Part shown: piece by piece, positions 2 through 18,952 of the stretch | Layout: each line of letters starts with the position of its first letter | How positions within the stretch are numbered: position 1 is the first letter of the stretch | Source of the DNA: Vicinamibacterales bacterium | GTDB taxonomy: Bacteria; Acidobacteriota; Vicinamibacteria; Vicinamibacterales; UBA8438 | Direction of reading: 5' to 3' | Assembly (NCBI GenBank): GCA_937766455.1 | Contig: CALLXD010000037.1 | Coordinates: 1 to 64,000 of the forward strand | Length of the DNA: 64,000 nucleotides | Made by a program: the position numbers and the translations under genes | The notes under the pieces: model-generated | What the model was told of the DNA's origin: nothing | Database searches by the model: none | The model's input: the letters and a program-made list of their open reading frames with translations, nothing else

Positions 2-2760
2 CAGACAGAACTCTGGGCCCCGATCGCCGTCTATGCCGACCTCAAACGAGAGGCGGGGCGACTGGACTTTGTGGACCTGCTCCTGCGGGCGCGGGACTTG
101 GTGCGCGATCATGAGTCGGTTCGGGCCGACTTTCAGCGTCGCTTCACGCGTATTTTTGTCGACGAGTTCCAAGACACGGACCCGTTGCAGGCCGAGATTC
201 TGCTGTTGCTTGCGGCGGACGATCCGGCTGAGCAGGACTGGCGCCGTGTCCGGCCGACCCCGGGAAAGCTCTTCATCGTCGGCGACCCGAAACAGTCAAT
301 CTACCGATTCCGACGTGCAGACGTCGGTGTCTACGAGCAGGTCAAGACACAGCTTGCCGAGCGTGGCATTGCATCGCTCGCGTTGACCACCAGTTTCCGG
401 GCCGTGCCCTCGATTCAGCGCCTGGTCAATCATGCCTTTGCGCCATTGATGTCCGGGCGATCGGCTCAGGCAGACTCGCCCCAGACGGCCTATGTGCCGT
501 TGTCGCCACATCGTCATGAGGTGACTGCACAGCCGAGCGTGGTGGTGCTTCCGGTTCCTCATCCGTACGGCGTGCGGCGCCTGGCCGCATCCGCCATCGA
601 ACGGTCCCTTCCCGATGCGGTCGGCGCGTTCGTCAGCTGGCTCGTCAACGAGAGCGGCTGGACGGTGTCGGAGCGAGTGCCGACCGAGCAGGTGGACGCA
701 GATACTGGAGCCGGACCGGCATCGGTGCAAGTCCCGATCGCCGCCCGTCACGTCTGCCTGCTCTTTCGCCGCTTCGAGAGCTTTGGCACCGATGTGACCC
801 GTGGCTACGTGACCGCGCTCGAGGCGCGGGAAGTCCCGCATTTGCTTATTGGCGGCCGGACCTTCCACGATCGGGAGGAAGTCACCACCATGCGGGCCGC
901 CCTCTCGGCCGTCGAGTACCCGGACGATGAGCTCTCGGTGTTCGCCACGCTGCGCGGCTCGTTGTTCTCTATCGAGGACGCCGCCTTGTTGGAGTACCAC
1001 CACCGGTTCCGGCGGCTCCACCCGTTCCGGATCCCCGACGTGCTCAGACGAAGCCACGACGGGACAGGACCCGCGGACGCCGAGCTGGAAGCGACTCGCG
1101 TCCGCTTGGGTCCGATCCGCGAGGCCCTGGAGGTCCTGCGACGGGCGCACAGCCAACGCAATGAGGTCCCGGTGGCGGAGACCATCGGCCGACTGCTCGA
1201 AGCCACCCGGGCCCACGCCGGTTTCGTGATGCGACCGGGCGGCGAGCAAGCGCTGGCCAACGTGATGCAAATCGCTGAAATGGCGCGTCGCTATGAGGCC
1301 GGCGGAGGGCTGTCGTTTCGCGGTTTCGTCGAACAGCTCGAGGACGACGCCCTCGCCCGCCAGGGTGGGGAAGCGCCGATTCTCGAGGAAGGCAGCGACG
1401 GGGTGCGCCTCATGACAGTGCACCGCGCCAAGGGACTCGAGTTTCCCGTGGTGATTCTGGCCGACCCCACCTGCAAACTGCACAGAAAGACGGCCGGGCG
1501 CTTCCTCGATCCTGACCGACGCCTGTGCGCGCTGCGGCTGGCCGGCTGGCCGCCGCTCGACCTTCTGGATCACGAAGACATCGAGGTCGAACGCGACCGC
1601 CAGGAGGGGGTGCGCCTCGCGTATGTCGCGGCCACCCGCGCCCGGGACCTGCTGGTGGTCCCGGCCGTCGGCGACGGTCCCTACCAAAACGGCTGGCTGG
1701 GCCCACTCGATGAGGCAATCTATCCACCGGTCGCGGTACGGCGCGAACCGGCAACCGCGTTCGGCTGCCCGGCCTTCGGGCGAGACAGCGTCGTCGACCG
1801 GCCTGACGGTGAGCCGGCGCGGTCCGACACGGTGGCACCCGGCCTCTACACATTCAATCCCGAGGCGGCCGGCCGGGCAAAGGTGCTGCCCTTTCAAGGC
1901 CGATCGCCTGCCCCCACCGATGCAGATGCCGCTGTCCAGGCGGACGAAACGGAGTTGGCGCACGAGTCGCCTGCTGCAACGCCCGACGGCTACACGGTCG
2001 TCTGGTGGGACCCCCAATTCGCCGACCCTGCGGTTGGGTGTCGAAGCGAGATTTGGCATCCGCCAGGCAGAGCTCCTGTCGAAAGAGACTCCCCCCGCGG
2101 TGGTCGAGGAAGACCTCACCCGCTACCGCGCGTGGCGTGAGCAGCGGGACCGCACCGTCATCGAGGCCGAAGTGCCCAGTTTGCGGGTTCGCACGGTCAC
2201 GGAGTGGGCCACGCGTCTCGTTGCTGACGGCGAACCACCGCCGCCGGGTGCGGCCGCGGTGGATGTGGTGGAACTCGGCCAGATCGCAGGCGCCGAACCG
2301 TCCGTGGACCCCGAGCGCCCAACCGGACGTCGTTTCGGCGCCCTGGTCCACGCCGTGCTGGCTGTTGCCCCTCTCGACGCCGACACCGGCCAGGTACGTG
2401 CGGTCGCCGTGCTCGAGGGACGTCTCCTCGGTGCTGATGGCGTCGAGGTGTCTGCAGCCGCCGGGTTGGTGGCCTCAGCCCTGAAGCATCCCCTGTTCGC
2501 CGCGGCCCGTCAGGCGGCTGAAGCGGGTGACTGCCGTCGGGAGACACCGGTCCACGATGCGGCAAGATGATGGCCTGGTGATCGAAGGCGTCGTCGACCT
2601 GGCATTCAAGCAGGAGGGCACCTGGGTGATCGTCGATTTCAAGACCGATCGAGAGCTGAGCCGCACGTTGGGCGTGTACCAGCGTCAAGTTCAGCTCTAC
2701 GCGCAGATGGTCGCGCACGCCACCGGAGAGCCGACCCGATCCGTCTTGATGCGGATCTGA
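2..2760 (+). CDS. AddA/RecB-type helicase-nuclease, 5'-truncated, two frameshifts
   Basis: 3' part of a UvrD-family double-strand-break repair helicase with a C-terminal RecB-like nuclease; the frame is open from base 2, so the gene begins outside the window. Visible helicase motifs: DEFQDTDP (about residue 52), GDPKQSIYRFRRAD (about 94), TVHRAKGLEFPVV (about 471) and YVAATRARDL (about 541). The nuclease domain follows, with GRRFGALVHAVL, EGVVDLAF and VIVDFKTDRE, the last carrying the D-x-K catalytic pair. The reading frame changes twice: frame 2 to 3 at the C5 run 2011-2015, and frame 3 to 1 near 2552. Dropping one C at each point gives continuous AddA-like sequence to the stop at 2758-2760. 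As written, the longest single frame stops at 2140 and lacks the nuclease. An addB partner would be expected upstream but is not visible. Confidence 0.85.
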
Positions 2761-6059: not shown

Positions 6060-6911
6060 TTGCGGCCACGTGTCTTCGTCCGCGCGGGTGTGATCGCGAC
6101 GGCACTCATCGGTGCCGGATGGGCCGCGCCATGGCCAACCGCGCCGGCCGTCCACACGCCGCTCGTCTCGCGGGCCGCCGCTCCTGCCGCCGGCCAGCCG
6201 GGACGTCCCCTCTTCAGACGCGAGGACCTGCGTCCGACACTCAAGAGACCGAGCGCAAACGCTCGCGAGTTCTTCTTCACGAGGGCCATCTACAACGGCG
6301 GTGGCCGCCGCTGGGCCTCGTGGGCCACCGATTTCCCGAAAGCCGATCGCCAGTTTCTGACCATCCTCGACCGTCTCGTCGACATGGACGCCTACGAGAT
6401 GGAGAACGCGATCCAGCTCGACGATCCCGCCATACGCCGGTTCCCGTTCCTCTACGCGCTCGAGGTCGGAAACATGTACATGACGCAGGCTGAGGTCACG
6501 GGTCTGCGCGAGTATCTGCTGGCCGGTGGCTTCCTGATGATCGACGATTTCTGGGGCACGTACGAGTGGGAGAACTTCGAGGCCGAAATCAAACGCGTGT
6601 TGCCCGAATACCAGATTGTCGATCTTCCCCTCAACCATCCGCTCTTCAACACCGTCTATAACATTAAGGAGATCGTTCAAGTTCCCTCTATCAACAACGC
6701 GCAGGGGGGACCGACGTGGGAACGGGACGGGTACGATGCGCAGGTCAAGGGGATTTTCGACGCAACCGGCCGGTTGATGGTCGTCATCAACTGGAACACG
6801 GACATCGGGGATGCATGGGAGTGGGCCGAAAGCCCATACTATCCATTGAGGTATTCGACGTACGCTATAGAAATGACCGTCAACATCATCGTGTACGCGA
6901 TGAGTCACTAG
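6060..6911 (+). CDS. DUF4159 domain protein, first copy
   Basis: A 283-aa protein with an N-terminal signal or anchor segment (about residues 8-24, Ala/Gly/Ile-rich), a Pro/Arg-rich linker and a DUF4159 domain (about 65-283). Recognisable landmarks are FFFTRAIYNGGG, FPFLYALEVG, the GGFLMIDDFWGTYEWENF block and the C-terminal GDAWEWAE. DUF4159 proteins occur next to MoxR/VWA genes in many bacteria, and their biochemical role is not established. The first start in frame is TTG at 6060; a GTG near 6090 would leave a shorter signal. This is the first gene of a co-directional run to 18952 and resembles the second DUF4159 gene at 10327, especially in the GGFL-x-x-DDF motif. Confidence 0.75.
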   Translation: MRPRVFVRAGVIATALIGAGWAAPWPTAPAVHTPLVSRAAAPAAGQPGRPLFRREDLRPTLKRPSANAREFFFTRAIYNGGGRRWASWATDFPKADRQFLTILDRLVDMDAYEMENAIQLDDPAIRRFPFLYALEVGNMYMTQAEVTGLREYLLAGGFLMIDDFWGTYEWENFEAEIKRVLPEYQIVDLPLNHPLFNTVYNIKEIVQVPSINNAQGGPTWERDGYDAQVKGIFDATGRLMVVINWNTDIGDAWEWAESPYYPLRYSTYAIEMTVNIIVYAMSH

Positions 6912-6996
6912 AAGAGGAGACGGGCCGCGGCGCTGCCGCGCGGGTCACGCGACCCACGCGCGGTGAATGCCAGACGGCCCGTTCGCGTCTGTCGCA

Positions 6997-9276
6997 ATGT
7001 TCGAATCGGTGTTCGAGTTTTTCTTCAAGTACCGTCCGATCGTCTTCGGCGAGGGCACGCTCGCCTTCCGCCCGACCGTGGCGACGTTCGTCGCGGCGGT
7101 GGCGGTAGTCGCGATCGGCGTCGCGACGTTCCGTACGTATCGACGGGTGCGAGCCAACACGCGGCCGATCGATCGCGCTGTGCTGACCGGCCTCCGCCTC
7201 ACCATCCTGGCGGTGCTGCTGCTCTGTCTCTTCCGGCCGGTGTTGGTCCTGTCACAGGTGGTGGCCCAGCAGAACTTCCTCGGTGTCTTGATCGACGACT
7301 CGCGCAGCATGGAGATCGCCGACCGCGACGGGGCGTCCCGCGCCGACTTCGTGGCCCAGCAATTCGGCGGCGAAGAGAGCCCGCTGCTCACTGCGCTGGC
7401 GGATCGCTTCGCGCTGCGACTGTTCAGCTTCTCCTCTTCGACCAACCGCATTACGTCCGTCGACGACCTGACGTTCGACGGCACGCGAACCCACCTGGGA
7501 CAGGCACTCACCCGTGCACACGAAGAGCTGGCTGGCGTGCCGCTCTCGGGAATGGTGGTGGTCACGGACGGCGCAGACAACGCCGGTGTCGAGTTGTCCG
7601 ATGCGCTGGTCCCGCTTGAGGCAGCCGGTGTTCCGGTGTTCACAGTCGGCTTGGGCCGTGAGAACTACAGCCGTGACATTCAGCTCAGCCGAGTGGATAC
7701 GCCGCGGTCGATCTTGAAGGGTGCCGCATTGGTCGTCGACGTCCTGCTGACGCAGAACGGCTATGCGGGCGAGACCGTGAGCGTCCAGGTGGAAGACGAG
7801 GGCAGGATCGTCGCCGACCAGGAGGTCACACTCCCCGCCGACGGCGAGCCGGCCACCGTACGAGTCCGGTTCACGGCATCGGACGCCGGTGCGCGTCTGT
7901 TCAGTTTCCGGGTGGCCCCACGCCCGGACGAAATGGTCACCCAGAACAACGAGCGGAACGCGCTGGTCGTCGTCGAAGACACACGCGAGAAGATCCTCTA
8001 CTTCGAGGGCGAGCCACGCTGGGAACTCAAGTTCATCAGACGCGCAGTCGAGGACGACGAGAATCTGCAGGTGGCCACGCTGCAGCGCACCGCCGAAAAC
8101 AAATTCATGCGGATGGGCGTCGAGGACGCGCAAGATCTGATCGGTGGATTCCCCCGGACCCGTGAAGAACTGTTCAAATACCGCGCCATCATCCTGGGCA
8201 GCATCGAGGCGAACTACTTCACGCCCGACCAGCTCCGGATGATTGCCGACTTTGTCAGCGAACGCGGCGGTAGCTTGTTGATGCTCGGCGGGCAACGGGC
8301 CTACGCGGAGGGCGGCTATGCGGGGACGCCGGTGGCCGACGTGCTGCCGGTGATGCTGAATGACACCGCGGGTGACGGCGAGGACGGGTTCTTCGTTGAG
8401 ACCAGTGTACGTCCGACCCGGGCCGGAGCAACCCACCCGACCACCCAGATCGCCGACACAGAGGAGGCCTCCGGGGCTCGGTGGCTCGAACTGCCTCCGA
8501 TCACGATGGTGAACCGGATCAGTGAAATCAAGCCCGGTGCGACCAAGCTCCTGGAAAGTGGCGATGGATCGTTGGTGGTACTCGCGTTCCAGCGTTACGG
8601 TGCCGGCAAGACCCTGGCCTTCCCGGTGCAGGATTCCTGGATGTGGCAGATGCACGCCGACATCGCGGTTGATGACCAGACGCACGAGACCCTGTGGCGA
8701 CGCTTGATGCGCTGGATGGTGGACGGGGTGCCGGATCAGGTGGTCGCTGACTTACCCACGGACCAGGTCGAGCTCGACGAGCCGCTGGCTCTACGGGCCG
8801 AGGTCGACGACGCCAACTACGAAGAAATCAACAACAGCCAGGTGTCGGCGTGGATCACCGATCCCGACGAGGAGCTCATCGAAGTTCCGATGGACTGGAC
8901 CGCCGATCGTGACGGCGAGTACGCCTCCAGCTTTGTGCCCCGCAAGGAAGGGTTGTACGAGGTAAGGATGGAGGCCACGAGTGACGGCGAGCTGTTGGGC
9001 AGCGACACCGCCTACGTACGCGTCGCCCCAAGCGACTCCGAGTACTACGATTCGACGATGCAGGCGCCGCTCCTCGAGCGCGTCGCGGAGGAGACCGGCG
9101 GTCGGTTCTATACCGCCGACACGGTGGATTCCCTCGTCGACGACATCCAGACCGTGGGCGGTGGCGTGACGGTCGTCGAAGAGCGCGACCTCTGGGACAT
9201 GCCCGTCTTCTTGCTCCTGTTTCTGACGCTCGTCCTCGGAGAGTGGGGCTACCGGCGGTCGCGGGGGTTGGCATGA
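6997..9276 (+). CDS. Membrane VWA protein with GATase1-like domain
   Basis: A large membrane protein of about 759 aa. Two N-terminal transmembrane helices (about residues 25-45 and 58-80) precede a von Willebrand A domain with the MIDAS motif DDSRSM and a second metal-site strand MVVVTDGADNAG. An Ig/CARDB-like stretch leads to a GATase1-like fold (ILYFEGEPRWELKFI, YRAIILGSIEANYF, GGSLLMLGGQRAYAEGGY), then beta-rich domains and a C-terminal transmembrane helix ending RRSRGLA. The layout matches proteins commonly found with MoxR, DUF58 and BatA. ATG at 6997 gives the usual short N-terminus; ATG at 6967 is an alternative in the same frame. The stop overlaps the next start (ATGA at 9273), which implies translational coupling. 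No catalytic triad for real amidotransferase activity is apparent. Confidence 0.8.
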   Translation: MFESVFEFFFKYRPIVFGEGTLAFRPTVATFVAAVAVVAIGVATFRTYRRVRANTRPIDRAVLTGLRLTILAVLLLCLFRPVLVLSQVVAQQNFLGVLIDDSRSMEIADRDGASRADFVAQQFGGEESPLLTALADRFALRLFSFSSSTNRITSVDDLTFDGTRTHLGQALTRAHEELAGVPLSGMVVVTDGADNAGVELSDALVPLEAAGVPVFTVGLGRENYSRDIQLSRVDTPRSILKGAALVVDVLLTQNGYAGETVSVQVEDEGRIVADQEVTLPADGEPATVRVRFTASDAGARLFSFRVAPRPDEMVTQNNERNALVVVEDTREKILYFEGEPRWELKFIRRAVEDDENLQVATLQRTAENKFMRMGVEDAQDLIGGFPRTREELFKYRAIILGSIEANYFTPDQLRMIADFVSERGGSLLMLGGQRAYAEGGYAGTPVADVLPVMLNDTAGDGEDGFFVETSVRPTRAGATHPTTQIADTEEASGARWLELPPITMVNRISEIKPGATKLLESGDGSLVVLAFQRYGAGKTLAFPVQDSWMWQMHADIAVDDQTHETLWRRLMRWMVDGVPDQVVADLPTDQVELDEPLALRAEVDDANYEEINNSQVSAWITDPDEELIEVPMDWTADRDGEYASSFVPRKEGLYEVRMEATSDGELLGSDTAYVRVAPSDSEYYDSTMQAPLLERVAEETGGRFYTADTVDSLVDDIQTVGGGVTVVEERDLWDMPVFLLLFLTLVLGEWGYRRSRGLA

Positions 9277-10322
9277 TGCATTCGGCGACCACGGGTCGGA
9301 CGGCGACGGGCTTCGCTGTCGCCGTCGCGGCCACGGCGCTGCTGGCGAGCCCGAGCCAGGTGGCGGCGCAGCAGACTCACATCCTCGTCCTCACCGGGTT
9401 GAGCGGTGATCCGGCCTACGCCGACCAGTTCTCCGAGTGGGCGACCACCCTCATTGACACCGCTATCGACCGCTACGAAGTACCGGCGCAGCAGGTCGTC
9501 TACCTAGCGGAGAAGGTGGAGCTTGATCCCGAGCGAATCAACGGGCGGTCAACCCAGGAGAACGTCGAGCAGGCGTTTGCCGACATCGCAGAACGGGCCG
9601 AGCCGAACGATCATGTCCTTGTGTTGCTGATTGGACACGGGAGCCACAATAGCGGCGAGTCGCGTTTCAATCTTCCTGGTCGCGATCTGACGGCGCAGGA
9701 CTACGCCGTACTCCTCGACACCCTGGCCACGCAGCGGGTCACGTTCGTCAACGCCGCCACCTCGAGCGGTGGGTTCATAGAAGCGCTGTCGGGTGAGGGA
9801 CGCACCGTCATGACCGCCACCCGAAGCGCTGGCCAGTGGAACGAGACGGTGTTTGGCGGATATTTCGTGGCCGCCTTCGCTGATGGCGAGGACGAATCCG
9901 ACCAGAACAAGGACGGACGCGTGTCGATGCTCGAGGCGTTTGAATACGCCGTGGTGCAGGTGGCCCGATCCTACGAGGCGGACGGACGTCTCCAGACCGA
10001 GCATGCGCTGCTCGATGACAATGGTGACGCGGAGGGCACGCGCGAGCCGGACCCGCTGACCACTGATGGCGCCATGGCACGCGTGTCGTTTCTGACCACC
10101 GGCGACGGGTCGGGGCTGGCGGGGTTGCCGGACGACCCGGCGATACGCGCGTTGTATGAAGAACGTCTCGCGCTGCAAGAGCAAGTCGAGGGACTTCGGG
10201 CCACGCGCGGCGGAACCGATACAGCCGGCTATGACGCCGAAATGGAGAAACTGCTTGTGGCGCTGGCGCTCAAGACGCGCCAGATTCGCAGCGCGGAAGG
10301 AGACGCGGCCGAGCCGCGCTAG
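9273..10322 (+). CDS. Exported caspase/legumain-fold protein lacking any cysteine
   Basis: A 349-aa secreted protein (signal peptide residues 1-33, ending SQVAAQQ) with a caspase/legumain-like core: hydrophobic strand HILVLTGLSG, strand plus histidine VLVLLIGHGSHN (His122), and strand FVNAATSSGGF (159-168) where active peptidases carry the catalytic cysteine. The position reads Ala/Thr/Ser, and the whole protein contains no cysteine, so cysteine-protease activity is excluded. Residues 210-221 (DQNKDGRVSMLE) match an EF-hand calcium loop with D1, N3, D5, G6, S9 and E12. The C-terminal third is helical and charged (EERLALQEQVEGLRATR). It overlaps the upstream VWA gene by 4 nt and ends 4 nt before the next DUF4159 gene. 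I infer a scaffold or sensor role. It could also be a hydrolase using another nucleophile. Confidence 0.7.
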   Translation: MMHSATTGRTATGFAVAVAATALLASPSQVAAQQTHILVLTGLSGDPAYADQFSEWATTLIDTAIDRYEVPAQQVVYLAEKVELDPERINGRSTQENVEQAFADIAERAEPNDHVLVLLIGHGSHNSGESRFNLPGRDLTAQDYAVLLDTLATQRVTFVNAATSSGGFIEALSGEGRTVMTATRSAGQWNETVFGGYFVAAFADGEDESDQNKDGRVSMLEAFEYAVVQVARSYEADGRLQTEHALLDDNGDAEGTREPDPLTTDGAMARVSFLTTGDGSGLAGLPDDPAIRALYEERLALQEQVEGLRATRGGTDTAGYDAEMEKLLVALALKTRQIRSAEGDAAEPR

Positions 10323-10326
10323 CGAG

Positions 10327-11103
10327 ATGGGACCGACCGCACGACGGTTAACGGTGGCACTGGGGCTTGCCGGGGTGCTGGCAGGTGGCGCCGCGGCAGC
10401 TGTCGCCATGCGCGCGGACACCCCGCCGGTGTCCGGTCCGGCCACCTTTGACGGCCGCTTCGTGTTCGCGCGTATCCGATATGCCGACGGGTATGCGGGC
10501 GGCGGGTTTTTCGGCCGACAGGACTTGCCCTGGTCGCACGACTATCCGCGTGCCGAGCAAAACTTGATGCGCATTCTCGATGAGGTCACCCTTATCGATC
10601 CATATCTCGGGGCGGACGGCGGGACGATTCTGATGCTCGACGACCCGAACTTGTTCAAGTACCCGTTCGCATACATGTCGGAGCCGGGATACTGGACCCT
10701 CTCGGAGGCCGAGGAGGAGGGCCTCCGGAACTACCTGCTCAAGGGCGGGTTCCTCATTTTCGACGATTTCCACGCGGACGATCACTGGTACAACCTGGAA
10801 ACGCGAATGAAGCAGGTGCTCCCCGACCTGAATTGGATCCAGCTCGATGCGTCGATGCCGGTCTATCACTCGTTTTTCGACATCGACTCCCTGGACTATC
10901 CGCCGCAATATCCGGAGACGCCGATCTTCTTCGGGCTCTTCGAAGACAACGACCCGAATGGCCGGTTGATCGTCGTGGCGAACCACAACAATGACATCGG
11001 TGAATCGTGGGAGTTCTCGATGACGGGATGGGTCCCGATCGATATCTCGAACGAGTCATTCAAATTTGGCGTGAACTACATCATGTACGCGATGACACAT
11101 TGA
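10327..11103 (+). CDS. DUF4159 domain protein, second copy
   Basis: A 258-aa protein with an N-terminal hydrophobic segment (about residues 7-25, Ala/Gly/Val-rich) and a DUF4159 domain. Landmarks are FVFARIRYADGYAGGGFF, GGTILMLDDPNLFKYPF, KGGFLIFDDFHADDHWYNLE and the C-terminal NDIGESWEFSMTGW. The frame is open upstream, but ATG at 10327, 4 nt after the previous stop, is the sensible start because it begins the hydrophobic segment. The protein is a divergent paralogue of the 6060-6911 product; both are predicted to be exported or membrane-tethered. Its biochemical function is unknown. Confidence 0.75.
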   Translation: MGPTARRLTVALGLAGVLAGGAAAAVAMRADTPPVSGPATFDGRFVFARIRYADGYAGGGFFGRQDLPWSHDYPRAEQNLMRILDEVTLIDPYLGADGGTILMLDDPNLFKYPFAYMSEPGYWTLSEAEEEGLRNYLLKGGFLIFDDFHADDHWYNLETRMKQVLPDLNWIQLDASMPVYHSFFDIDSLDYPPQYPETPIFFGLFEDNDPNGRLIVVANHNNDIGESWEFSMTGWVPIDISNESFKFGVNYIMYAMTH

Positions 11104-11168: not shown

Positions 11169-12236
11169 ATGGACCTGGCTGCGGGCAAGGAGAGCGGAAT
11201 CGTGGACTCATTCGCAGAACAACCGACCGACCTGAACAACCCGGACGATATTGCCCTGGCCGACCGCATGAAGGCGGGACGCGAGCAGATTCTCATCGAG
11301 CTGCGCAAGCAAATCATCGGGCAGCAAGAGGTCATCAATGAAACCCTGCTGACGCTCTTCGTCGGCGGCAACAGCCTCATCATCGGCGTGCCCGGCTTGG
11401 CCAAGACCCTGCTCATCCAGACGATGGCGGAGGTGCTCGACCTGAAGTTCTCCCGGATCCAGTTCACGCCGGACCTCATGCCATCCGACATCACTGGCAC
11501 CGACATCATTCAGGAAGATGCAGAGAGCGGTGGGCGGAAGATGGTCTTCGCGCCCGGTCCCGTCTTCACCAACGTGCTGCTCGCGGACGAAATCAACCGG
11601 ACACCACCCAAGACGCAGTCGGCGTTGCTTGAGGCGATGCAAGAGCATCGCGTCACCGTGCAAGGTCGCACCTACACGCTCGACGAGCCCTTCTTCGTGT
11701 TCGCCACCCAGAACCCCATCGAACTCGAAGGCACGTACCCGTTGCCCGAGGCACAGCTCGACCGGTTCATGTTCCACATCGTTATCAAGCATCCACCGGA
11801 AGATGAGGAACTGGAGGTGGTGCGGGCTACCACCGGCAACGTCGCGCCTGAGTTCAACCGCGCCGTGACCGGAGCCGACCTGGTCGAGTTCCAGCGTCTC
11901 GTTCGGCGAGTGCCGGTCTCTGAGGCGGTCATGCGCTACGCCCTGAGCATCGTGCGTACCAGCCGGCTCACGGGAGACGGAGCCCCCGACTTCAGCAAGT
12001 GGGTCTCCTATGGCGCCAGCGTGCGCGCCGCCCAATACTTGATTCTTGGAGGGAAGGCGCGCGCATTGACCGAGGGGCGCTATCACGTCAGCTTTGACGA
12101 TATTCGTGCGCTCGCCCACCCCGTGCTACGTCACCGGGTGTTGCTCAATTTCCACGCCGAATCGGAAGGCATTACCTCCGATCAGATTGTCGACCAGTTG
12201 CTCGAGGCCGTGCCGGTTCCGACCTCCCAGATGTAA
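11169..12236 (+). CDS. MoxR-family AAA+ ATPase
   Basis: A 355-aa cytoplasmic AAA+ ATPase of the MoxR group, chaperone-like ATPases that act with VWA-domain partners. The N-terminal helix region (AGREQILIELRKQIIGQQEV) leads to Walker A GVPGLAKT, the MoxR signature FTPDLMPSDITGTD, Walker B LLADEINRTPPKTQSALLEAMQE, sensor 1 FATQNPIELEGTYPLPEAQ with an arginine finger DRF, and a lid domain to the end (quoted blocks are landmarks). Length is normal for the family. It sits 26 bp upstream of the DUF58 gene, the standard MoxR-DUF58-VWA order. The start is ATG 11169, with GTG 11202 as an alternative. It presumably remodels or activates the membrane VWA proteins encoded around it. Confidence 0.93.
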   Translation: MDLAAGKESGIVDSFAEQPTDLNNPDDIALADRMKAGREQILIELRKQIIGQQEVINETLLTLFVGGNSLIIGVPGLAKTLLIQTMAEVLDLKFSRIQFTPDLMPSDITGTDIIQEDAESGGRKMVFAPGPVFTNVLLADEINRTPPKTQSALLEAMQEHRVTVQGRTYTLDEPFFVFATQNPIELEGTYPLPEAQLDRFMFHIVIKHPPEDEELEVVRATTGNVAPEFNRAVTGADLVEFQRLVRRVPVSEAVMRYALSIVRTSRLTGDGAPDFSKWVSYGASVRAAQYLILGGKARALTEGRYHVSFDDIRALAHPVLRHRVLLNFHAESEGITSDQIVDQLLEAVPVPTSQM

Positions 12237-12262: not shown

Positions 12263-13177
12263 ATGCCCACCGCCGCCACCGCATCGCCCGGCGCACGTTT
12301 CATCGACCCGAAGGTACTGGTGCGTATCGGCAGCCTCGAGCTGGCGGCGCGCTTCGTGGTGGAGGGGTTTATCAACGGGCTCCACAAGGCGCCGTATCTC
12401 GGTATCTCGGTGGACTTCGCCGAGCACCGCGGATATATGCCGGGCGACGACATCCGGCGTATCGATTGGCGGCTGTTCGCGCGGACCGACCGGTTCTACG
12501 TCAAACAATTCGAGGCAGACACCAACACGAACTTCTCAATTCTGTTTGATGTGTCGAAGTCCATGAGCTTTGGCAGCCGCGGCGTCACAAAGCTGGACTA
12601 CGGCCGGTATCTCGCGGCCTGCCTGAGCTATCTCAGCAGCCGGCAGCGCGACCGGGTCGGCATCGTGACGTTTGATGACGACATCGTCGAACGCGTGCCG
12701 CCCTCGGCGAAGCACTTCGACGTGACGCTTCACACGCTCGACAAGATCGTGGCCGGACGCCCGGGCGCCCTGGGGCCGCCACTCTACAAGGCTACCGAAT
12801 TCTTCAAACGCCGAAGCATTCTCGTCGTCATCTCCGACTTTTACGAAGAGCCCGAGAAGGTCCTTGACGCGATCAAGCCACTCCGCTTTGCCGGCAATGA
12901 CGTGATCGTGTTCCACATCCTCGACCCGGCCGAGGTGGACTTCCCCTACGACGAGTCGAGCAGTTTCGCGGACATGGAAACCGGCCAGAAGATCCCGGTG
13001 GTGCCGGACAAGCTGCGCGACGAGTATCGCGAACTCGTGCAGGACCATATCCGGTCACTCAGTCAGTTGTGTAGTCAGAACCGCATCGACTACGCCTTCG
13101 TGAACACCAAGGTTCCGCTCGATCATGCGTTGTTCAAATACCTCGCGATGCGCCACAAGATGACGAAGGTGCGTTGA
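12263..13177 (+). CDS. DUF58 domain protein, VWA-like MoxR partner
   Basis: A 304-aa soluble protein of the DUF58 family. DUF58 hallmarks are visible: GISVDFAEHRGYMPGDDIRRIDWRLFART (core motif, spanning about residues 46-74), then a VWA-like fold with the metal motif FDVSKSM and a strand ILVVISDFYEE. DUF58 proteins are encoded beside MoxR ATPases and are thought to be their direct partners. The stop overlaps the ATG of the BatA-type gene by one base (TGATG at 13175-13179), so translation is probably coupled. No membrane segment is visible, unlike the neighbouring VWA proteins. Confidence 0.9.
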   Translation: MPTAATASPGARFIDPKVLVRIGSLELAARFVVEGFINGLHKAPYLGISVDFAEHRGYMPGDDIRRIDWRLFARTDRFYVKQFEADTNTNFSILFDVSKSMSFGSRGVTKLDYGRYLAACLSYLSSRQRDRVGIVTFDDDIVERVPPSAKHFDVTLHTLDKIVAGRPGALGPPLYKATEFFKRRSILVVISDFYEEPEKVLDAIKPLRFAGNDVIVFHILDPAEVDFPYDESSSFADMETGQKIPVVPDKLRDEYRELVQDHIRSLSQLCSQNRIDYAFVNTKVPLDHALFKYLAMRHKMTKVR

Positions 13178-15252
13178 TGTCTTTTCTGGCCCCACTGTTC
13201 TTCGCAGCCATCGCGGCCCTCGGGGTGCCGGTGCTGATTCATATGATTCAGCGCCAGCGGACGGATCTCGTCGAATTTCCGTCCCTGATGTTCGTCCGCA
13301 AAATCCCATTTCATTCCCTGCGGCGTCAGCGTGTCCGCCATTGGTTGCTGTTGTTGATGCGATGCGCCGCGCTGGTGCTCCTCATCGCCGCGTTCGCGCG
13401 GCCCTTTCTCCGCTCGACCGCACTCGCGGCCGTGACCGGGGGCTCACGCGAGGTCGTGGTGCTGCTCGACCAGTCCTACAGCATGGGCTACGGCGGTCGA
13501 TGGGAGCAGGCGAAAGACATCGCCCGGGGGGTGGTGCGTGATCTGGCACCAGCCGACGAGGCCACCATCGTCTTCTTCGACAGCGGGGCCGAGTCGAGTA
13601 CACGGTCGACCACGGATCGCGCCAGCTTGCTTGCGGCAATCGACAGCGCCGAACTGAGCACTGGCACCACCCGATACGGTCCCGCTCTGCAACTGACCCA
13701 GGGAATTCTCGAAGACTCGGACCAGCCGCTGCTCGAGGCGGTGCTGATCAGCGACTTCCAACGCGTCGGTCTCGACAGCGCGGGCAGCGTGCTGCTGCCG
13801 CCGGGCACGGTTCTGACGCCGGTGTCGGTGTCCGACGACAGCCCGACCCAGAACGTCAGCGTCGCCGGGGTCTCGGTGCAACGGGACCTGTTTGCGGACC
13901 GCGAGCGGGCGATCGTGACGGCACGCTTGGCCAACCGCGGGAGCGAACCTGTTGCCAACTTGCGCGTGGCGCTCGAACTGAACGGTCGCGAGCTGGAATC
14001 GTTGCCAGTCTCGTTGGACGCGGACGGACCGGCCACCGTGACCTTCGCTCCGTTCACCCTGGAGGACTCGGCGATGCCGATCTCCGTGCGGGCCGACGCG
14101 GATCGGCTTCCGCACGACGATGTGTTCCACTTCACTGTGGCCCCGGGGGACGTCGTACCGATCCTTATTGTGGGCCGGCCGGGTAACACAGGACGGGCCG
14201 CCAACCTGTACTTGAGACAGGCACTCGCGATCGGTAGCAGCCCCGCGTTCGCGGTCACTGAGCGGTCGGTGGACCAGGTCACGGCCGCCGACGTCGAGGC
14301 GGCGGGGGTCGTGGTGCTGAACGATGTCGGGCTCCCGGCGGGCGCAATCGGAGCCGCCATCACGCGGTTCGTCGAGGACGGTGGAGGCCTCTGGCTGGCG
14401 CTGGGCGAAAATGCGCGCTGGCCTGGCGACGACCTCGACCTGTTGCCCGGACCGATTGAAGGACCGGCCGACCGCGACGGCCGCGGCGGTTCGCTGGGAT
14501 TCGTCGACTACAGCCATCCGGTCTTCAGCGTGTTCAGCACGCCACGCAGCGGGGACCTGACCGCTCCGCGGTTCTTCCGCTATCGGCCCCTGAGGGTCGG
14601 TCCGGAGACGTCGGTGCTCGCCCGATTCGACAACGGTGACACCGCGATGGCGGAGCACCGGCTCGGCGCGGGCCGAGTGCTCATCTGGACGTCGACGCTC
14701 GACACGTTCTGGAATGACTTCGCCCGTAATTCGATTTACCTGCCGTTCGTGCACAAGGCCGTGGAGTACCTGGCCGACTACGAGGCGCCAACGTCAGCCT
14801 TGACCTCTGGCCAGGTCCTTGATCTATCAGCCTATCCGGGCGCCGCGGACCTCGATGTATCGAGCCCCAGTCTCGTCGTGCGGAATCCGTCTGAAGACCG
14901 TATCGATGCCGGGAGCGACGGCCGGCCGGGGTTCATCGACCTGACCGAGCAGGGGTTTTACGAGATTCGTGACAGCGACGCGGGAGAGGCCGACCCGGTG
15001 CTGGTGGCCGTGAACGTGGACCTCACTGAATCCAATCTGGAGCAGGTCGATCCGCAGGAACTGGTCGCAATCGTCACCGGACGGGCGGCCGGTGACCGGT
15101 CTCTCGGCGAAGCGCGCGAGCTGGCGCCGGAAGATCTGGAACGTCGTCAGACCCTGTGGTGGTATCTCTTGATCGGAGCCCTCGGGTTCCTCGCCACCGA
15201 AACCGTGATGTCGAACCGGCTGTCGCAAGCCGAATTGGACCTGGACGATTAG
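13177..15252 (+). CDS. BatA-type membrane VWA protein
   Basis: About 691 aa. The N-terminus is the aerotolerance/BatA type: FLAPLFFAAIAALGVPVLIHM, then FPSLMFVRKIPFHSLRRQRVRHW and a second transmembrane helix (about residues 54-72). A VWA domain follows with MIDAS motif LLDQSYSMGYGG, then a CARDB-like region, a GATase1-like fold (IVGRPGNTGRAANLYL, VVVLNDVGLPAGAIGAAI, GLWLALGENARW) and a C-terminal transmembrane helix near 660-680. The architecture is close to that of the 6997-9276 product, and both probably display large periplasmic regions. ATG at 13177 is chosen because it overlaps the upstream stop in TGATG; a TTG one codon earlier is in frame. It is likely an effector or structural partner of MoxR. 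Confidence 0.85.
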   Translation: MSFLAPLFFAAIAALGVPVLIHMIQRQRTDLVEFPSLMFVRKIPFHSLRRQRVRHWLLLLMRCAALVLLIAAFARPFLRSTALAAVTGGSREVVVLLDQSYSMGYGGRWEQAKDIARGVVRDLAPADEATIVFFDSGAESSTRSTTDRASLLAAIDSAELSTGTTRYGPALQLTQGILEDSDQPLLEAVLISDFQRVGLDSAGSVLLPPGTVLTPVSVSDDSPTQNVSVAGVSVQRDLFADRERAIVTARLANRGSEPVANLRVALELNGRELESLPVSLDADGPATVTFAPFTLEDSAMPISVRADADRLPHDDVFHFTVAPGDVVPILIVGRPGNTGRAANLYLRQALAIGSSPAFAVTERSVDQVTAADVEAAGVVVLNDVGLPAGAIGAAITRFVEDGGGLWLALGENARWPGDDLDLLPGPIEGPADRDGRGGSLGFVDYSHPVFSVFSTPRSGDLTAPRFFRYRPLRVGPETSVLARFDNGDTAMAEHRLGAGRVLIWTSTLDTFWNDFARNSIYLPFVHKAVEYLADYEAPTSALTSGQVLDLSAYPGAADLDVSSPSLVVRNPSEDRIDAGSDGRPGFIDLTEQGFYEIRDSDAGEADPVLVAVNVDLTESNLEQVDPQELVAIVTGRAAGDRSLGEARELAPEDLERRQTLWWYLLIGALGFLATETVMSNRLSQAELDLDD

Positions 15253-15346: not shown

Positions 15347-18300
15347 ATGTTGAGCGATTCTTGGTCGTCATCTTCAGGCGGTCGTCACGATCTAGTCGAC
15401 GTCATTCGGCGCGTACGAAACCGATGGCGGTTGCGGATCGCCCTGCGTGGCGTCGCGGTGCTAGCGGCTGCCGGCCTCGGGGCCTTTCTCATCTCCTCCT
15501 ACGGCCTTGAGGTCTTCAAGTTCTCGGGCGGCTCGGTCATTGCGTTCCGGGTGCTTACCTACTGTGCGCTGCTGGGGTTGGCGTACTGGTATCTGATTCG
15601 ACCTCTGGCTCGCCCGATACCGGACGAGCAGGTCGCGTTGTATCTCGAGGAGCACGATCCATCGTTGCAGGCCGCCGTGCTGAGTGCGCTGGAAGAGGCG
15701 AAGCGTGGGACCCAGGCCGACAGCGCGAACTACTCTCCAGCGCTGGTAGACAAATTGATCCAGTCCGCGGTCGAGCGATGTCGCGGGCTCGACATGGGGG
15801 CCGCGGTCGAACGGGACAAGATTCGTCAGTCATCGAGCTACCTGGCCGGAGTTGCCGTGGTGGCGCTGCTGCTGTTCATCTTCGGCCCGTCGTACCTGCG
15901 GTACGGCGCGACGGCGTTGATGACCCCAACCGGCAGCTTGCAGGCGGCCAGCCCGTACAGCATTGACGTCTTGCCAGGCGATGTCACCATCGCGCGGGGC
16001 TCGGATCTGTCGGTCACGGCGCAATTGGTGGGGTTCGAGACGAACGACGTGAACCTGTTCATGCGCACCAGTGCGAGCGATACGTACGAGCGGGTGCCGC
16101 TGATTCCGGTAGAAACCGTGGAAGGCGAGGCACCGGTCGTCGGCGGGTTCGAGACGGTCTTGTTTGATGTACGAGACGAGACCCACTACTTCATCGAAGC
16201 GGACAGCGTGCAGTCGGACAACTTCACGCTCGAGGTTATCGACCTGCCGTATGTCGAGCATCTCGAGTTGGAATATCACTTCCCCGACTACACCGGTCTC
16301 GAGCCGCGACTGATTCAGGACGGCGCCGATATCGCCGTGCTGCGCGGCACCGAAGTGCGCGTGGCGGTGTTCCCGACCATGGCCACACCGGCCGGTCGGC
16401 TGGTGTTCGACGAGTCGAATGCCACCGCGTTGACCCCGCGAGCGGACGGCGTGCTGACCGCCAGTTTCGTGGTCGATGAAGACGGGTTCTACCAAGTCGA
16501 GCTCGAGGGGCCCAGCGGCGAAGCGGTGGATGCCTCACCGCAGTACACCATCGACGTCCTTACCGACCAGCCGCCGTCGGTCATGTTCGTGAAGCCGGGC
16601 CGCGACACCACCGCGAACGCCATTGAAGAGGTGTTTCTGGAGGCTCGGGCGGACGACGACTTTGGGGTCCGGTCGCTGACCCTGACGTATTCGGTCAACG
16701 GTGGCCCGGAAGAGACCGTCGGCCTGTTCAACTCTGATGAAGGCGGGCTGAAGGAAGTGACGGCTGGCCACACATTGTTCCTCGAGGAATTCGAGCTCGA
16801 GCCGGGAGACTTCGTGTCGTACTACGGCACCGCCGGTGACAATCAGTCGGGCACGTCTCGGGTGGTCAAGAGCGACCTGTATTTCGTGCAGATTCGCGCG
16901 TTCCGGCGCGACTTCCGAGCAGAGCAGTCGCAAGGTGGAGGCGGCGGGGGTGGCGGAGGCGGAGGCGGCGACGCTCGGGCCCTGTCCGAAGCGCAACGGC
17001 AGGTTATTTCGGCCACCTTCAATCTGGTGCGCGATCGGGACACGCTTTCCGAAGACGAGTACCGCGAGAATCTCGTCTTTCTGACGCTCTCCCAGGGTCG
17101 CCTACGGGAGCAGGTCGAGACGCTGTTGCGTCGGATGAACAGCCGGGTCATGCCCGCCGACCCCGCATTTCGCTCCATCCTGGCAATACTGCCGCAGGCA
17201 GAAGCAGAGATGGCAACGGCAGAGACCGCGCTGCAAGAGCAGGATGTCGACGCCGCCCTCCCGGCCGAGCAACGCGCCCTACAGCAGCTGCAACGAGCGG
17301 AGGAAGCCTACGACGAGGTTCGGGTTCAACAGCAGCAAGGTGGCGGCGGCGGAGGCGGGGGCGGTCAGAACTCCGCCGAGGATCTGGCCGACCTGTTCGA
17401 GCTAGAGCTGGACAAGCTGCAGAACCAGTACGAGACGACCCAGCGTGGCGAACAGCAGTCGTCGGACAACCAGGTCGACGAGTTGATGGAGCGCCTGAAG
17501 GAACTGGCTCGTCGGCAGGAACAGGAGGCCGAGCGGCAGCGTCGTCGAGCCCGTGGTGGGCAAACCGCGCAAGCCGGGGGCGGCGCGTCTCAGCGCGCGC
17601 TGGCCGAAGAAGCAGAAGAGGCGGCCCGCCGCCTCGAGCGTCTGGCCCGCGAGCAACAGTCGCCACAGATGATGCAGGCGGCCCGGAAACTGCAGGAGGC
17701 CGCGGACGCCATGCGTGAAGCGGCGGCGAACGCGGACAACCAGGGCTTCGCGGAGGCAGGTGCGGCGCTCGACCGACTACGAGACGTGCAACGCGAGCTG
17801 GCCGGCGAACAGAGCAGCCGCCTGGCACGCGACATTGAAGACGCGCAGCGACGGGCGGCCGACGTCGCAGCGGAAGAGTCGGAGATTGCCGAGCAGGTCA
17901 ACAATTTGGGCAACCTCTCCGAGGAGGAACGGCAGGATCGCGCGAGCCGCCTGTCGGAGCGGAAGGACGAGATGTTCGGGGAGCTCGCTGACCTCGAGCG
18001 TGAGCTGGACTCCACATCGGCCGAATTCCGCCGCGACGAACAAAATGCATCGCGCGCCCTACAAGAGGCCGCGAACGGCATCCGGGAGAGCAAGCTCAAA
18101 GAGAAGATCCGCTACTCGCGTGGCCTGGTCCGGGCTCGTTCGCCGGAGTACGCGCAGCAGTTCGAACAGGAAATTGGCGGCGACATTGCGGATCTCGAGC
18201 GGCAGCTAGCCGAGGCGGCCGACCAGGTCGGGAACGCACAAGGGTCCGGGTTGGAACAGGCGCTCGACCAAACCCGGGACCTGATGCGGGGCCTCGAGTC

Positions 18301-18952
18301 ACTCGAACAGCGGATTGAGCAAGGCAGCCAGCAGGCGTCCAACCAGGAGGGCCAGGAGGGCCAGCCCGGCGGACAAGGTCAAGAGGGACAGCAAGGCCAG
18401 GCCGGTCAAGAGGGCCAGCAGGGGCAAGGTGGCCAGGGCCAGGGTCAGGGCCAGCAGGGCCAAGGACAGCCGGGAGAAGGCCAGCAAGGGCAGGGGCAGG
18501 GACAAGGGCAGCAGGGGCAAGGGGCAGACGGAGGCGACGGCAACGCCTCCGGCGGTCCTTCTCGCGGCGGCGGAACCGGCAATCGACGGCCGGGAGACGC
18601 CTTCGACCCGCAGGACGTGCGGCAGTGGCAGCGAGAATTCCGCGAGCGCGGCTCAGAGGCACAAGAGCTGCAGCGGCTGTTGAATGCCGAAAATTTCGGC
18701 GACGTCGGCGACCTGAATGAAGTCATCCAAGCAATGCGAGAGCTCGACGATTCCCGCATCTATCGGGACGCGGACGAGATCGCCCGGCTGCAGTCATTCG
18801 TTCTCGAAGGCCTGAAGCGGTTCGAGTACCGGCTCCGTCGTGAAGTCGACGGCGACAGCGACGACCTGTATCTGGCCGGCAGCGAAGAGGCGCCGGCCGA
18901 ATTCCGGGATCTCATCGACGAGTACTTCAAATCGTTGGCGGACCAGCAGTAG
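15347..18952 (+). CDS. Giant DUF4175-like membrane/coiled-coil protein
   Basis: A 1201-aa protein. N-terminal membrane helices lie at about residues 29-50, 60-80 and 163-185. A long Ig-like beta region follows (about 190-520). After a poly-Gly linker (about 530-542), a highly charged helical region (about 545-1000) is rich in Gln/Glu/Arg/Ala and broken by a second poly-Gly stretch after QQQQ (about 662-674). Next comes a Gly/Gln repeat (about 998-1065) and a conserved-looking helical C-terminus (QEFRERGSEAQELQRLL, EYRLRREVDG). This order resembles DUF4175 proteins found downstream of MoxR/BatA genes. It is the last gene of the operon and is followed by a strong terminator. Likely a periplasmic spanning or scaffold protein; function inferred only from context. 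Confidence 0.78.
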   Translation: MLSDSWSSSSGGRHDLVDVIRRVRNRWRLRIALRGVAVLAAAGLGAFLISSYGLEVFKFSGGSVIAFRVLTYCALLGLAYWYLIRPLARPIPDEQVALYLEEHDPSLQAAVLSALEEAKRGTQADSANYSPALVDKLIQSAVERCRGLDMGAAVERDKIRQSSSYLAGVAVVALLLFIFGPSYLRYGATALMTPTGSLQAASPYSIDVLPGDVTIARGSDLSVTAQLVGFETNDVNLFMRTSASDTYERVPLIPVETVEGEAPVVGGFETVLFDVRDETHYFIEADSVQSDNFTLEVIDLPYVEHLELEYHFPDYTGLEPRLIQDGADIAVLRGTEVRVAVFPTMATPAGRLVFDESNATALTPRADGVLTASFVVDEDGFYQVELEGPSGEAVDASPQYTIDVLTDQPPSVMFVKPGRDTTANAIEEVFLEARADDDFGVRSLTLTYSVNGGPEETVGLFNSDEGGLKEVTAGHTLFLEEFELEPGDFVSYYGTAGDNQSGTSRVVKSDLYFVQIRAFRRDFRAEQSQGGGGGGGGGGGGDARALSEAQRQVISATFNLVRDRDTLSEDEYRENLVFLTLSQGRLREQVETLLRRMNSRVMPADPAFRSILAILPQAEAEMATAETALQEQDVDAALPAEQRALQQLQRAEEAYDEVRVQQQQGGGGGGGGGQNSAEDLADLFELELDKLQNQYETTQRGEQQSSDNQVDELMERLKELARRQEQEAERQRRRARGGQTAQAGGGASQRALAEEAEEAARRLERLAREQQSPQMMQAARKLQEAADAMREAAANADNQGFAEAGAALDRLRDVQRELAGEQSSRLARDIEDAQRRAADVAAEESEIAEQVNNLGNLSEEERQDRASRLSERKDEMFGELADLERELDSTSAEFRRDEQNASRALQEAANGIRESKLKEKIRYSRGLVRARSPEYAQQFEQEIGGDIADLERQLAEAADQVGNAQGSGLEQALDQTRDLMRGLESLEQRIEQGSQQASNQEGQEGQPGGQGQEGQQGQAGQEGQQGQGGQGQGQGQQGQGQPGEGQQGQGQGQGQQGQGADGGDGNASGGPSRGGGTGNRRPGDAFDPQDVRQWQREFRERGSEAQELQRLLNAENFGDVGDLNEVIQAMRELDDSRIYRDADEIARLQSFVLEGLKRFEYRLRREVDGDSDDLYLAGSEEAPAEFRDLIDEYFKSLADQQ
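18340..18540 (+). repeat. Degenerate Gly-Gln-rich coding repeat
   Basis: A low-complexity stretch of imperfect 6-9 nt units (GGCCAG / GGACAA / GGCCAGCAG) encoding about 65 residues that are nearly all Gly, Gln and Glu. It sits between the coiled-coil region and the C-terminal domain of the DUF4175-like protein. It is a coding repeat, not a CRISPR or intergenic repeat. The opposite strand reads as an artificial Leu-rich frame. Confidence 0.8.

What the first reader, a model, noticed from the sequence alone, without database searches (positions are those of the whole stretch)
9273..10322. Cysteine-free caspase/legumain fold with an EF-hand loop
The GHG-histidine strand is retained, but the nucleophile strand reads NAATSSGGF and there is no cysteine anywhere in 349 residues. 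An EF-hand-type loop (residues 210-221) is inserted downstream. This looks like a calcium-sensing pseudo-protease inside a MoxR operon, or a hydrolase with a Ser/Thr nucleophile.
Basis: partly seen in the sequence, partly recalled or inferred. Interest (0 to 1): 0.62.

Follow-up and report, generated by a model that had tools for sequence, protein, structure and literature searches.

The report
Legumain-fold protein without catalytic cysteine
A secreted bacterial protein has the fold of the protease legumain but lacks the cysteine that does the cutting; its many relatives in two bacterial phyla lack it too and sit in the same envelope gene cluster, so it is probably a repurposed binding protein, although a serine/threonine enzyme is not ruled out.

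Summary
Window 9273-10322 (+) encodes a 349-residue, probably exported protein with no cysteine. Pfam places it in Peptidase_C13 above threshold, and an AlphaFold model (pLDDT 90) matches legumains best. The GHG histidine is kept; the residue at the Cys position is Thr163. It is not a one-off: among 187 distinct relatives from Acidobacteriota and Gemmatimonadota none has Cys at that site, while the GHG His is kept in 185. The gene lies directly behind the same vWA/GATase1-like gene in 110 of 111 testable loci, usually in a MoxR-DUF58-BatA-DUF4159 operon. The site is Ser/Thr in 155/163 of the main clade but Ala, Gly or Glu in 14/24 of a paralogous clade, and is far less constrained than His122, Asp138, Asp210, Glu221 or Glu243. 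A conserved pseudopeptidase (binding/scaffold module) is most likely; a Ser/Thr enzyme in the main clade is not excluded. Two points weaken: a Cys-free chain is ordinary here (neighbouring proteins have 0-2), and the calcium-type loop is conserved but not an insertion, since Cys-bearing relatives carry it at the same place. Seven relatives have Cys one residue later. No calcium binding, catalysis or complex was tested.

The parts
9273..10322 (+). CDS of the C13-like (legumain-fold) protein, 349 aa; its ATG overlaps the TGA stop of the upstream gene (ATGA)
   Evidence: Pfam PF01650
9273..9371 (+). putative signal peptide, residues 1-33 (MMHS...QVAAQ)
   Evidence: read from the sequence; AF2 helix 13-24; not run through a signal-peptide predictor
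9633..9641 (+). GHG motif, residues 121-123; H122 corresponds to the catalytic His
   Evidence: H in 185/187 distinct relatives
9666..9686 (+). FNLPGRD motif, residues 132-138; D138 invariant
   Evidence: 187/187
9750..9776 (+). nucleophile-strand loop NAATSSGGF, residues 160-168; T163 (9759-9761) at the Cys position
9900..9935 (+). EF-hand-type calcium loop DQNKDGRVSMLE, residues 210-221
   Evidence: D210 and E221 187/187, D/N at 212 187/187, D/N at 214 184/187
9996..10028 (+). TEHALLDDNGD segment, residues 242-252; E243 invariant
   Evidence: E243 186/186
10137..10307 (+). C-terminal long helices, residues 289-345
   Evidence: AF2 helices 289-310 and 317-345
6967..9276 (+). upstream neighbour: vWA plus GATase1-like protein, 769 aa, with N-terminal and C-terminal membrane helices
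   Evidence: Pfam PF07090 (VWA_2 below cut-off), AF2, hydropathy; immediately upstream in 110 of 111 loci
6060..6911 (+). DUF4159 protein, first copy (start codon uncertain)
   Evidence: PF13709 E=1.6e-45
10327..11103 (+). DUF4159 protein, second copy
   Evidence: PF13709 E=3.8e-44; start read from the sequence
11169..12236 (+). MoxR AAA+ ATPase
   Evidence: PF07726 E=3.7e-62
12263..13177 (+). DUF58 protein
   Evidence: PF01882 E=2.6e-44
13174..15252 (+). BatA/vWA membrane protein
   Evidence: PF07584 and VWA_2
15347..18952 (+). DUF4175 protein
   Evidence: PF13779 E=2.4e-15

Best explanation
The gene encodes a periplasmic pseudopeptidase: a legumain-fold (clan CD) domain that lacks the nucleophilic Cys throughout its family, while the fold, the GHG-His side of the old active-site pocket and a calcium-type loop are kept. 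It most likely works non-catalytically, as a binding or scaffold module that docks on the membrane-anchored vWA/GATase1-like protein encoded just upstream, as part of a MoxR-DUF58-BatA-DUF4159 envelope assembly. The calcium loop would be structural, stabilising the domain. Shown here by computation: fold, absence of Cys at the site across the family, conservation pattern, synteny and co-occurrence. Inferred: periplasmic location, loss of an ancestral Cys, non-catalytic role, docking on the upstream protein, calcium binding.
For: No Cys at site 163 in 187 distinct relatives; the only Cys in that column belong to separate, low-scoring C13/C14 peptidases. Site 163 ranks 62nd of 225 core positions in conservation, while D138, D210, E221, E243, G121, G45 and H122 are the top seven, and it changes 22 times on the tree against 2 for H122 and 0 for those four acids. 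Non-nucleophilic residues occur there: P, N, A in clade A (8 changes) and A, G, E in 14 of 24 clade B members. AF2/Foldseek give a legumain fold. Directly downstream of the vWA/GATase1 gene in 110/111 loci (the remaining one has it too). In 60 genomes of the class, 42 of 44 with DUF4159 have the gene and 0 of 16 without (tabulated by hand). Inactive clan CD proteins are known, including catalytically inactive caspase domains in MoxR-vWA systems (PMC7159879).
Against: In clade A the site is Ser or Thr in 155 of 163 (95%), with fewer changes than the residues beside it, and the GHG His is nearly invariant in both clades; a purely non-catalytic protein need not keep either. Docking on the upstream protein rests on gene order alone. 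Calcium binding is inferred from sequence.
Confidence: 0.55

Rival explanations
1. Clade A proteins, including the window's, are enzymes that use Ser or Thr at the old Cys position with His122 as general base (hydrolase, esterase or acyl transfer); clade B later lost activity.
For: S/T in 155/163 of clade A and in all Gemmatimonadota sequences examined; H122 161/163 in clade A; other positions around the pocket are also kept (A182, T183, E/Q188, S165).
Against: Eight replacements by P, N or A within clade A; His stays invariant in clade B although the site there is often A, G or E, so His conservation does not need a nucleophile; the adjacent loop positions 162 and 164 are also rich in Ser/Thr/Ala, so S/T may be a small-residue or helix-capping preference; no Ser/Thr clan CD peptidase turned up in the literature searched.
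Confidence: 0.2
2. The conserved acidic residues (D138, D210, E221, E243, D249) together with His122 form a site for a metal other than calcium or for another ligand, and the protein acts as a ligand sensor or metal-dependent enzyme unrelated to peptidase chemistry.
For: Four of these acids are invariant and D249 nearly so; they are among the most conserved residues of the family.
Against: D210 and E221 are explained by the calcium-type loop, and D138 may be an ancestral structural residue; model coordinates could not be inspected here, so clustering is unknown.
Confidence: 0.12
3. It is an ordinary active C13/C14 cysteine peptidase family, and the window copy alone is degenerate or mis-sequenced.
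For: Pfam assigns Peptidase_C13; seven relatives (six in one group plus L185) have a Cys one residue further on, at position 164.
Against: No canonical Cys in any of 187 relatives; open frames and the same loop in the window's closest relatives L003-L017; position 164 is Ala/Ser in nearly all others.
Confidence: 0.03

Closest known systems
Peptidase family C13 (legumain; clan CD)
   Same: Sequence match above the Pfam cut-off, legumain structures as best fold matches, GHG histidine, C-x-S-G-type loop position.
   Different: Catalytic Cys replaced by Thr/Ser or other residues; bacterial, probably exported, fixed in a MoxR/vWA operon; C-terminal long helices.
Bacterial pseudo-orthocaspases (C14; PMC6426788)
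   Same: Clan CD proteins of bacteria that lost the His-Cys dyad, commonly with Ser at the Cys site.
   Different: [quoted passage not shown] here His is kept almost without exception. Different family, and reported mainly in Alphaproteobacteria and Cyanobacteria.
Inactive caspase domains of MoxR-vWA ternary conflict systems (PMC7159879)
   Same: Catalytically inactive caspase-fold domains tied to MoxR-vWA pairs.
   Different: Those are fused to vWA effectors in VMAP-type systems; this is a stand-alone, probably exported protein in a DUF58/BatA/DUF4159 operon, without VMAP. PADLOC gave only a weak caspase hit.
Trypanosoma brucei metacaspase MCA4 (Proto 2011, cited in PMC6440977)
   Same: A clan CD protein described as a pseudopeptidase.
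   Different: Eukaryotic C14 protein; named here as precedent only.
MoxR-BatA-DUF58 envelope operons
   Same: Same core genes around the window gene.
   Different: The legumain-fold gene behind the vWA/GATase1 gene was not found described in the papers searched.

Membership tests
Peptidase C13 / clan CD | Sequence homology | tested here: met
   PF01650 25.4 bits, cut-off 22.8; 23 of 40 relatives match at E<=0.01
Peptidase C13 / clan CD | Caspase/legumain fold | tested here: met
   AF2 pLDDT 90.3; Foldseek best hits legumains, probability 1.00; TM-scores normalised to the query 0.35-0.49 in the listed hits
Peptidase C13 / clan CD | Catalytic His in H-G motif | tested here: met
   185/187
Peptidase C13 / clan CD | Catalytic Cys | tested here: not met
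   0/187 at site 163; Cys at 164 in 7
Peptidase C13 / clan CD | P1-specific endopeptidase activity | not testable with these tools
   needs purified protein
EF-hand / calcium-loop proteins | Acidic/Asn ligands at loop positions 1, 3, 5, 12 | tested here: met
   187/187, 187/187 (D/N), 184/187 (D/N), 187/187
EF-hand / calcium-loop proteins | Full helix-loop-helix | tested here: inconclusive
   AF2 shows only a 4-residue helix before the loop (206-209) and a long one after (219-236)
EF-hand / calcium-loop proteins | Calcium binding | not testable with these tools
   needs ITC or a structure
MoxR-vWA ternary conflict systems | VMAP, iSTAND, FtsH or beta-propeller third component | tested here: not met
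   None among the eight operon proteins scanned with Pfam; MoxR scores only marginally on the bpMoxR model (28.6, cut-off 27). The rest of the window was not scanned for such a component.
Ser/Thr hydrolases | Invariant nucleophile | tested here: not met
   S/T 155/163 in clade A, S 10/24 in clade B

The most novel reading that the evidence does not exclude
The main clade is a clan CD enzyme that has exchanged its Cys nucleophile for Ser/Thr while keeping the GHG histidine, acting in the periplasm with a MoxR/vWA machine.
Probability: 0.18. Interest if true: 0.75.

Novelty: new variant of a known kind. Interest (0 to 1): 0.42.

Why it matters
MoxR-vWA envelope operons are poorly understood. This adds a component that is present in most genomes of the window's class and about half of a Gemmatimonadota sample; Pfam's model would file it as a cysteine peptidase although its catalytic Cys is missing throughout. 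It warns against annotating these as active peptidases, gives a natural set in which His stays while the nucleophile drifts, and makes a clear test possible: binding module or Ser/Thr enzyme.

Tried and rejected
Degenerate single copy or sequencing error: rejected, since a Cys-free site recurs across two phyla. Whole-chain lack of Cys as evidence: rejected, because neighbours are equally Cys-poor. EF-loop as an insertion: rejected, because Cys-bearing relatives L201, L215, L218, L221, L222, L224, L280 carry a similar loop. S165 as the new nucleophile: not favoured, since it is also Ser in most Cys-bearing relatives. Foldseek of the upstream vWA/GATase1 model gave only low TM-scores to the query (0.10-0.14) and was uninformative. 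NCBIfam gave no hit for the window protein and a weak EACC1-caspase hit in 4 of 40 relatives. Paper searches found no description of this family. Searches failed for technical reasons.

Full report
WHAT IS THERE. Window 9273-10322 (+) encodes 349 residues with a hydrophobic, export-type N-terminus and no Cys. Its ATG overlaps the TGA of the upstream gene. Pfam gives one family, Peptidase_C13, over the curated cut-off. The AF2 model, built from the window protein and 39 relatives, has mean pLDDT 90.3 and pTM 0.83; the best PDB matches are legumains at Foldseek probability 1.00, followed by GPI transamidase, metacaspases and MALT1. So the fold claim is right. The TM-scores to the query are moderate (0.35-0.49 in the list); an extra C-terminal helical part probably contributes.

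THE SITE. The loop N160-A-A-T163-S-S-G-G-F168 aligns with C-x-S-G of clan CD peptidases; phmmer places T163 on the Cys of metacaspase-4, and the Cys of low-scoring C13/C14 relatives falls in the same column.

RELATIVES. In the window's class 160 of 193 genomes have a match, in the phylum sample 122 of 396 (a few of the weakest matches there are Cys-bearing peptidases rather than family members), and in a Gemmatimonadota sample 78 of 150. Many Vicinamibacterial genomes have two copies: clade A (window) and clade B, a separate clade (branch support 99 in the FastTree tree). Named records come from Acidobacteriota, including Vicinamibacterales, Thermoanaerobaculia, Holophagales and Blastocatellia, and from Gemmatimonadota; a few bear other labels, such as Acidimicrobiia or Bifidobacterium, which may be misassigned bins.

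CONSERVATION. After removing near-duplicates (over 93% identity) 187 sequences remain. At site 163, clade A has S133 T22 P3 N3 A2 and clade B has S10 A6 G5 E3; no Cys. H122 is kept in 185/187; D138, D210 and E221 in all; E243 in 186/186; S165 in 184. Parsimony changes on the tree: 22 at site 163, 2 at H122, 0 at D138, D210, E221 and E243. Site 163 ranks 62nd of 225 core positions. Within clade A the tree needs 8 changes between S/T and other residues. A required nucleophile should behave like His122; it does not. Yet 95% S/T in clade A comes with fewer changes than at positions 160-162 and 164 (25-37), so a Ser/Thr nucleophile there cannot be dismissed. Seven sequences have Cys at 164, one residue after the canonical place; whether that Cys acts is unknown.

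THE CALCIUM-TYPE LOOP. Residues 210-221 fit a 12-residue EF loop, with positions 1 and 12 invariant. The model shows a long exiting helix but only a short entering one, so it is a calcium-type loop rather than a proven EF-hand. Cys-bearing relatives carry a similar loop at the same place (ADSNGDGRTTMEETY, ADTDNDGVVSFLEAH and others), so it appears inherited rather than inserted into a pseudo-protease.

CONTEXT. The gene is directly downstream of the vWA/GATase1-like gene in 110 of 111 loci with enough upstream sequence, and the exception shows the same order. Clade A loci usually continue with DUF4159, MoxR, DUF58, BatA and DUF4175; clade B loci sit behind a DUF4175-like gene and a diverged vWA/GATase1 gene. 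Across 60 genomes of the class, 42 of 44 with DUF4159 carry the gene and none of 16 without (tabulated by hand from the two lists). The upstream protein is predicted with two N-terminal helices and a C-terminal membrane helix around vWA, beta-sandwich and GATase1-like parts. In a Gemmatimonadota locus a TPR protein with a weak Peptidase_MA_2 match (below cut-off) follows the gene; the window has DUF4159 there instead.

MECHANISM. Most likely a pseudopeptidase used for binding or scaffolding in an envelope MoxR/vWA assembly (0.55). Rivals are a Ser/Thr enzyme in clade A (0.2) and a different metal or ligand site (0.12). Gene order supports partnership with the upstream protein but does not show contact. 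Precedents exist for inactive clan CD proteins: pseudo-orthocaspases, where the commonest change is His-Tyr/Cys-Ser (PMC6426788), inactive caspase domains in MoxR-vWA systems (PMC7159879) and trypanosome MCA4 (PMC6440977). In legumain the active site is described as Cys189-His148-Asn42, with Cys189 and His148 strictly conserved in clan CD (PMC9604545); here only the His of that dyad is kept. The variant here is His kept, Cys absent, probably exported, and tied to one operon type.

LIMITS. Many sequences come from metagenome-assembled genomes. The 93% filter, the FastTree topology and the assignment of clade B affect the counts. Signal peptide and membrane helices come from sequence inspection and simple hydropathy. 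That the ancestor had Cys is inferred from the wider clan, not from a rooted tree. Pocket distances were not measured.

Noticed in passing
window 71-2750: A UvrD/RecB-like helicase-nuclease gene is broken by apparent frameshifts: the reading continues in another + frame from about 2040, and the nuclease-like part near 2560-2700 lies in a different frame again. Assembly error or pseudogene not decided.
   Followed up: partly
L113:8963-11074 and the roughly 3.5 kb gap between the C13-like gene and DUF4159 in many other loci: A TPR-rich protein with an HEMAH motif (weak Peptidase_MA_2 match below cut-off) directly follows the C13-like gene in L113; it is absent from this place in the window. Only L113 was examined.
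   Followed up: partly
L182, L195, L197, L210, L211, L231, L185: These relatives have Cys at position 164, one residue after the canonical catalytic position (e.g. NATNCSGG); whether it is functional is unknown.
   Followed up: partly
window 15347-18952: The DUF4175 protein has a long Gly/Gln-rich low-complexity stretch (GQGQEGQQGQ...) before its C-terminus.
   Followed up: no
genome G000 (contig C37 is the window): The window's genome has seven DUF4159 matches, two of them in this operon.
   Followed up: no
L041 (= L150) and L172: The only two distinct relatives that lost the GHG histidine (GNG and GFG); L041 also has Pro at the Cys position.
   Followed up: no
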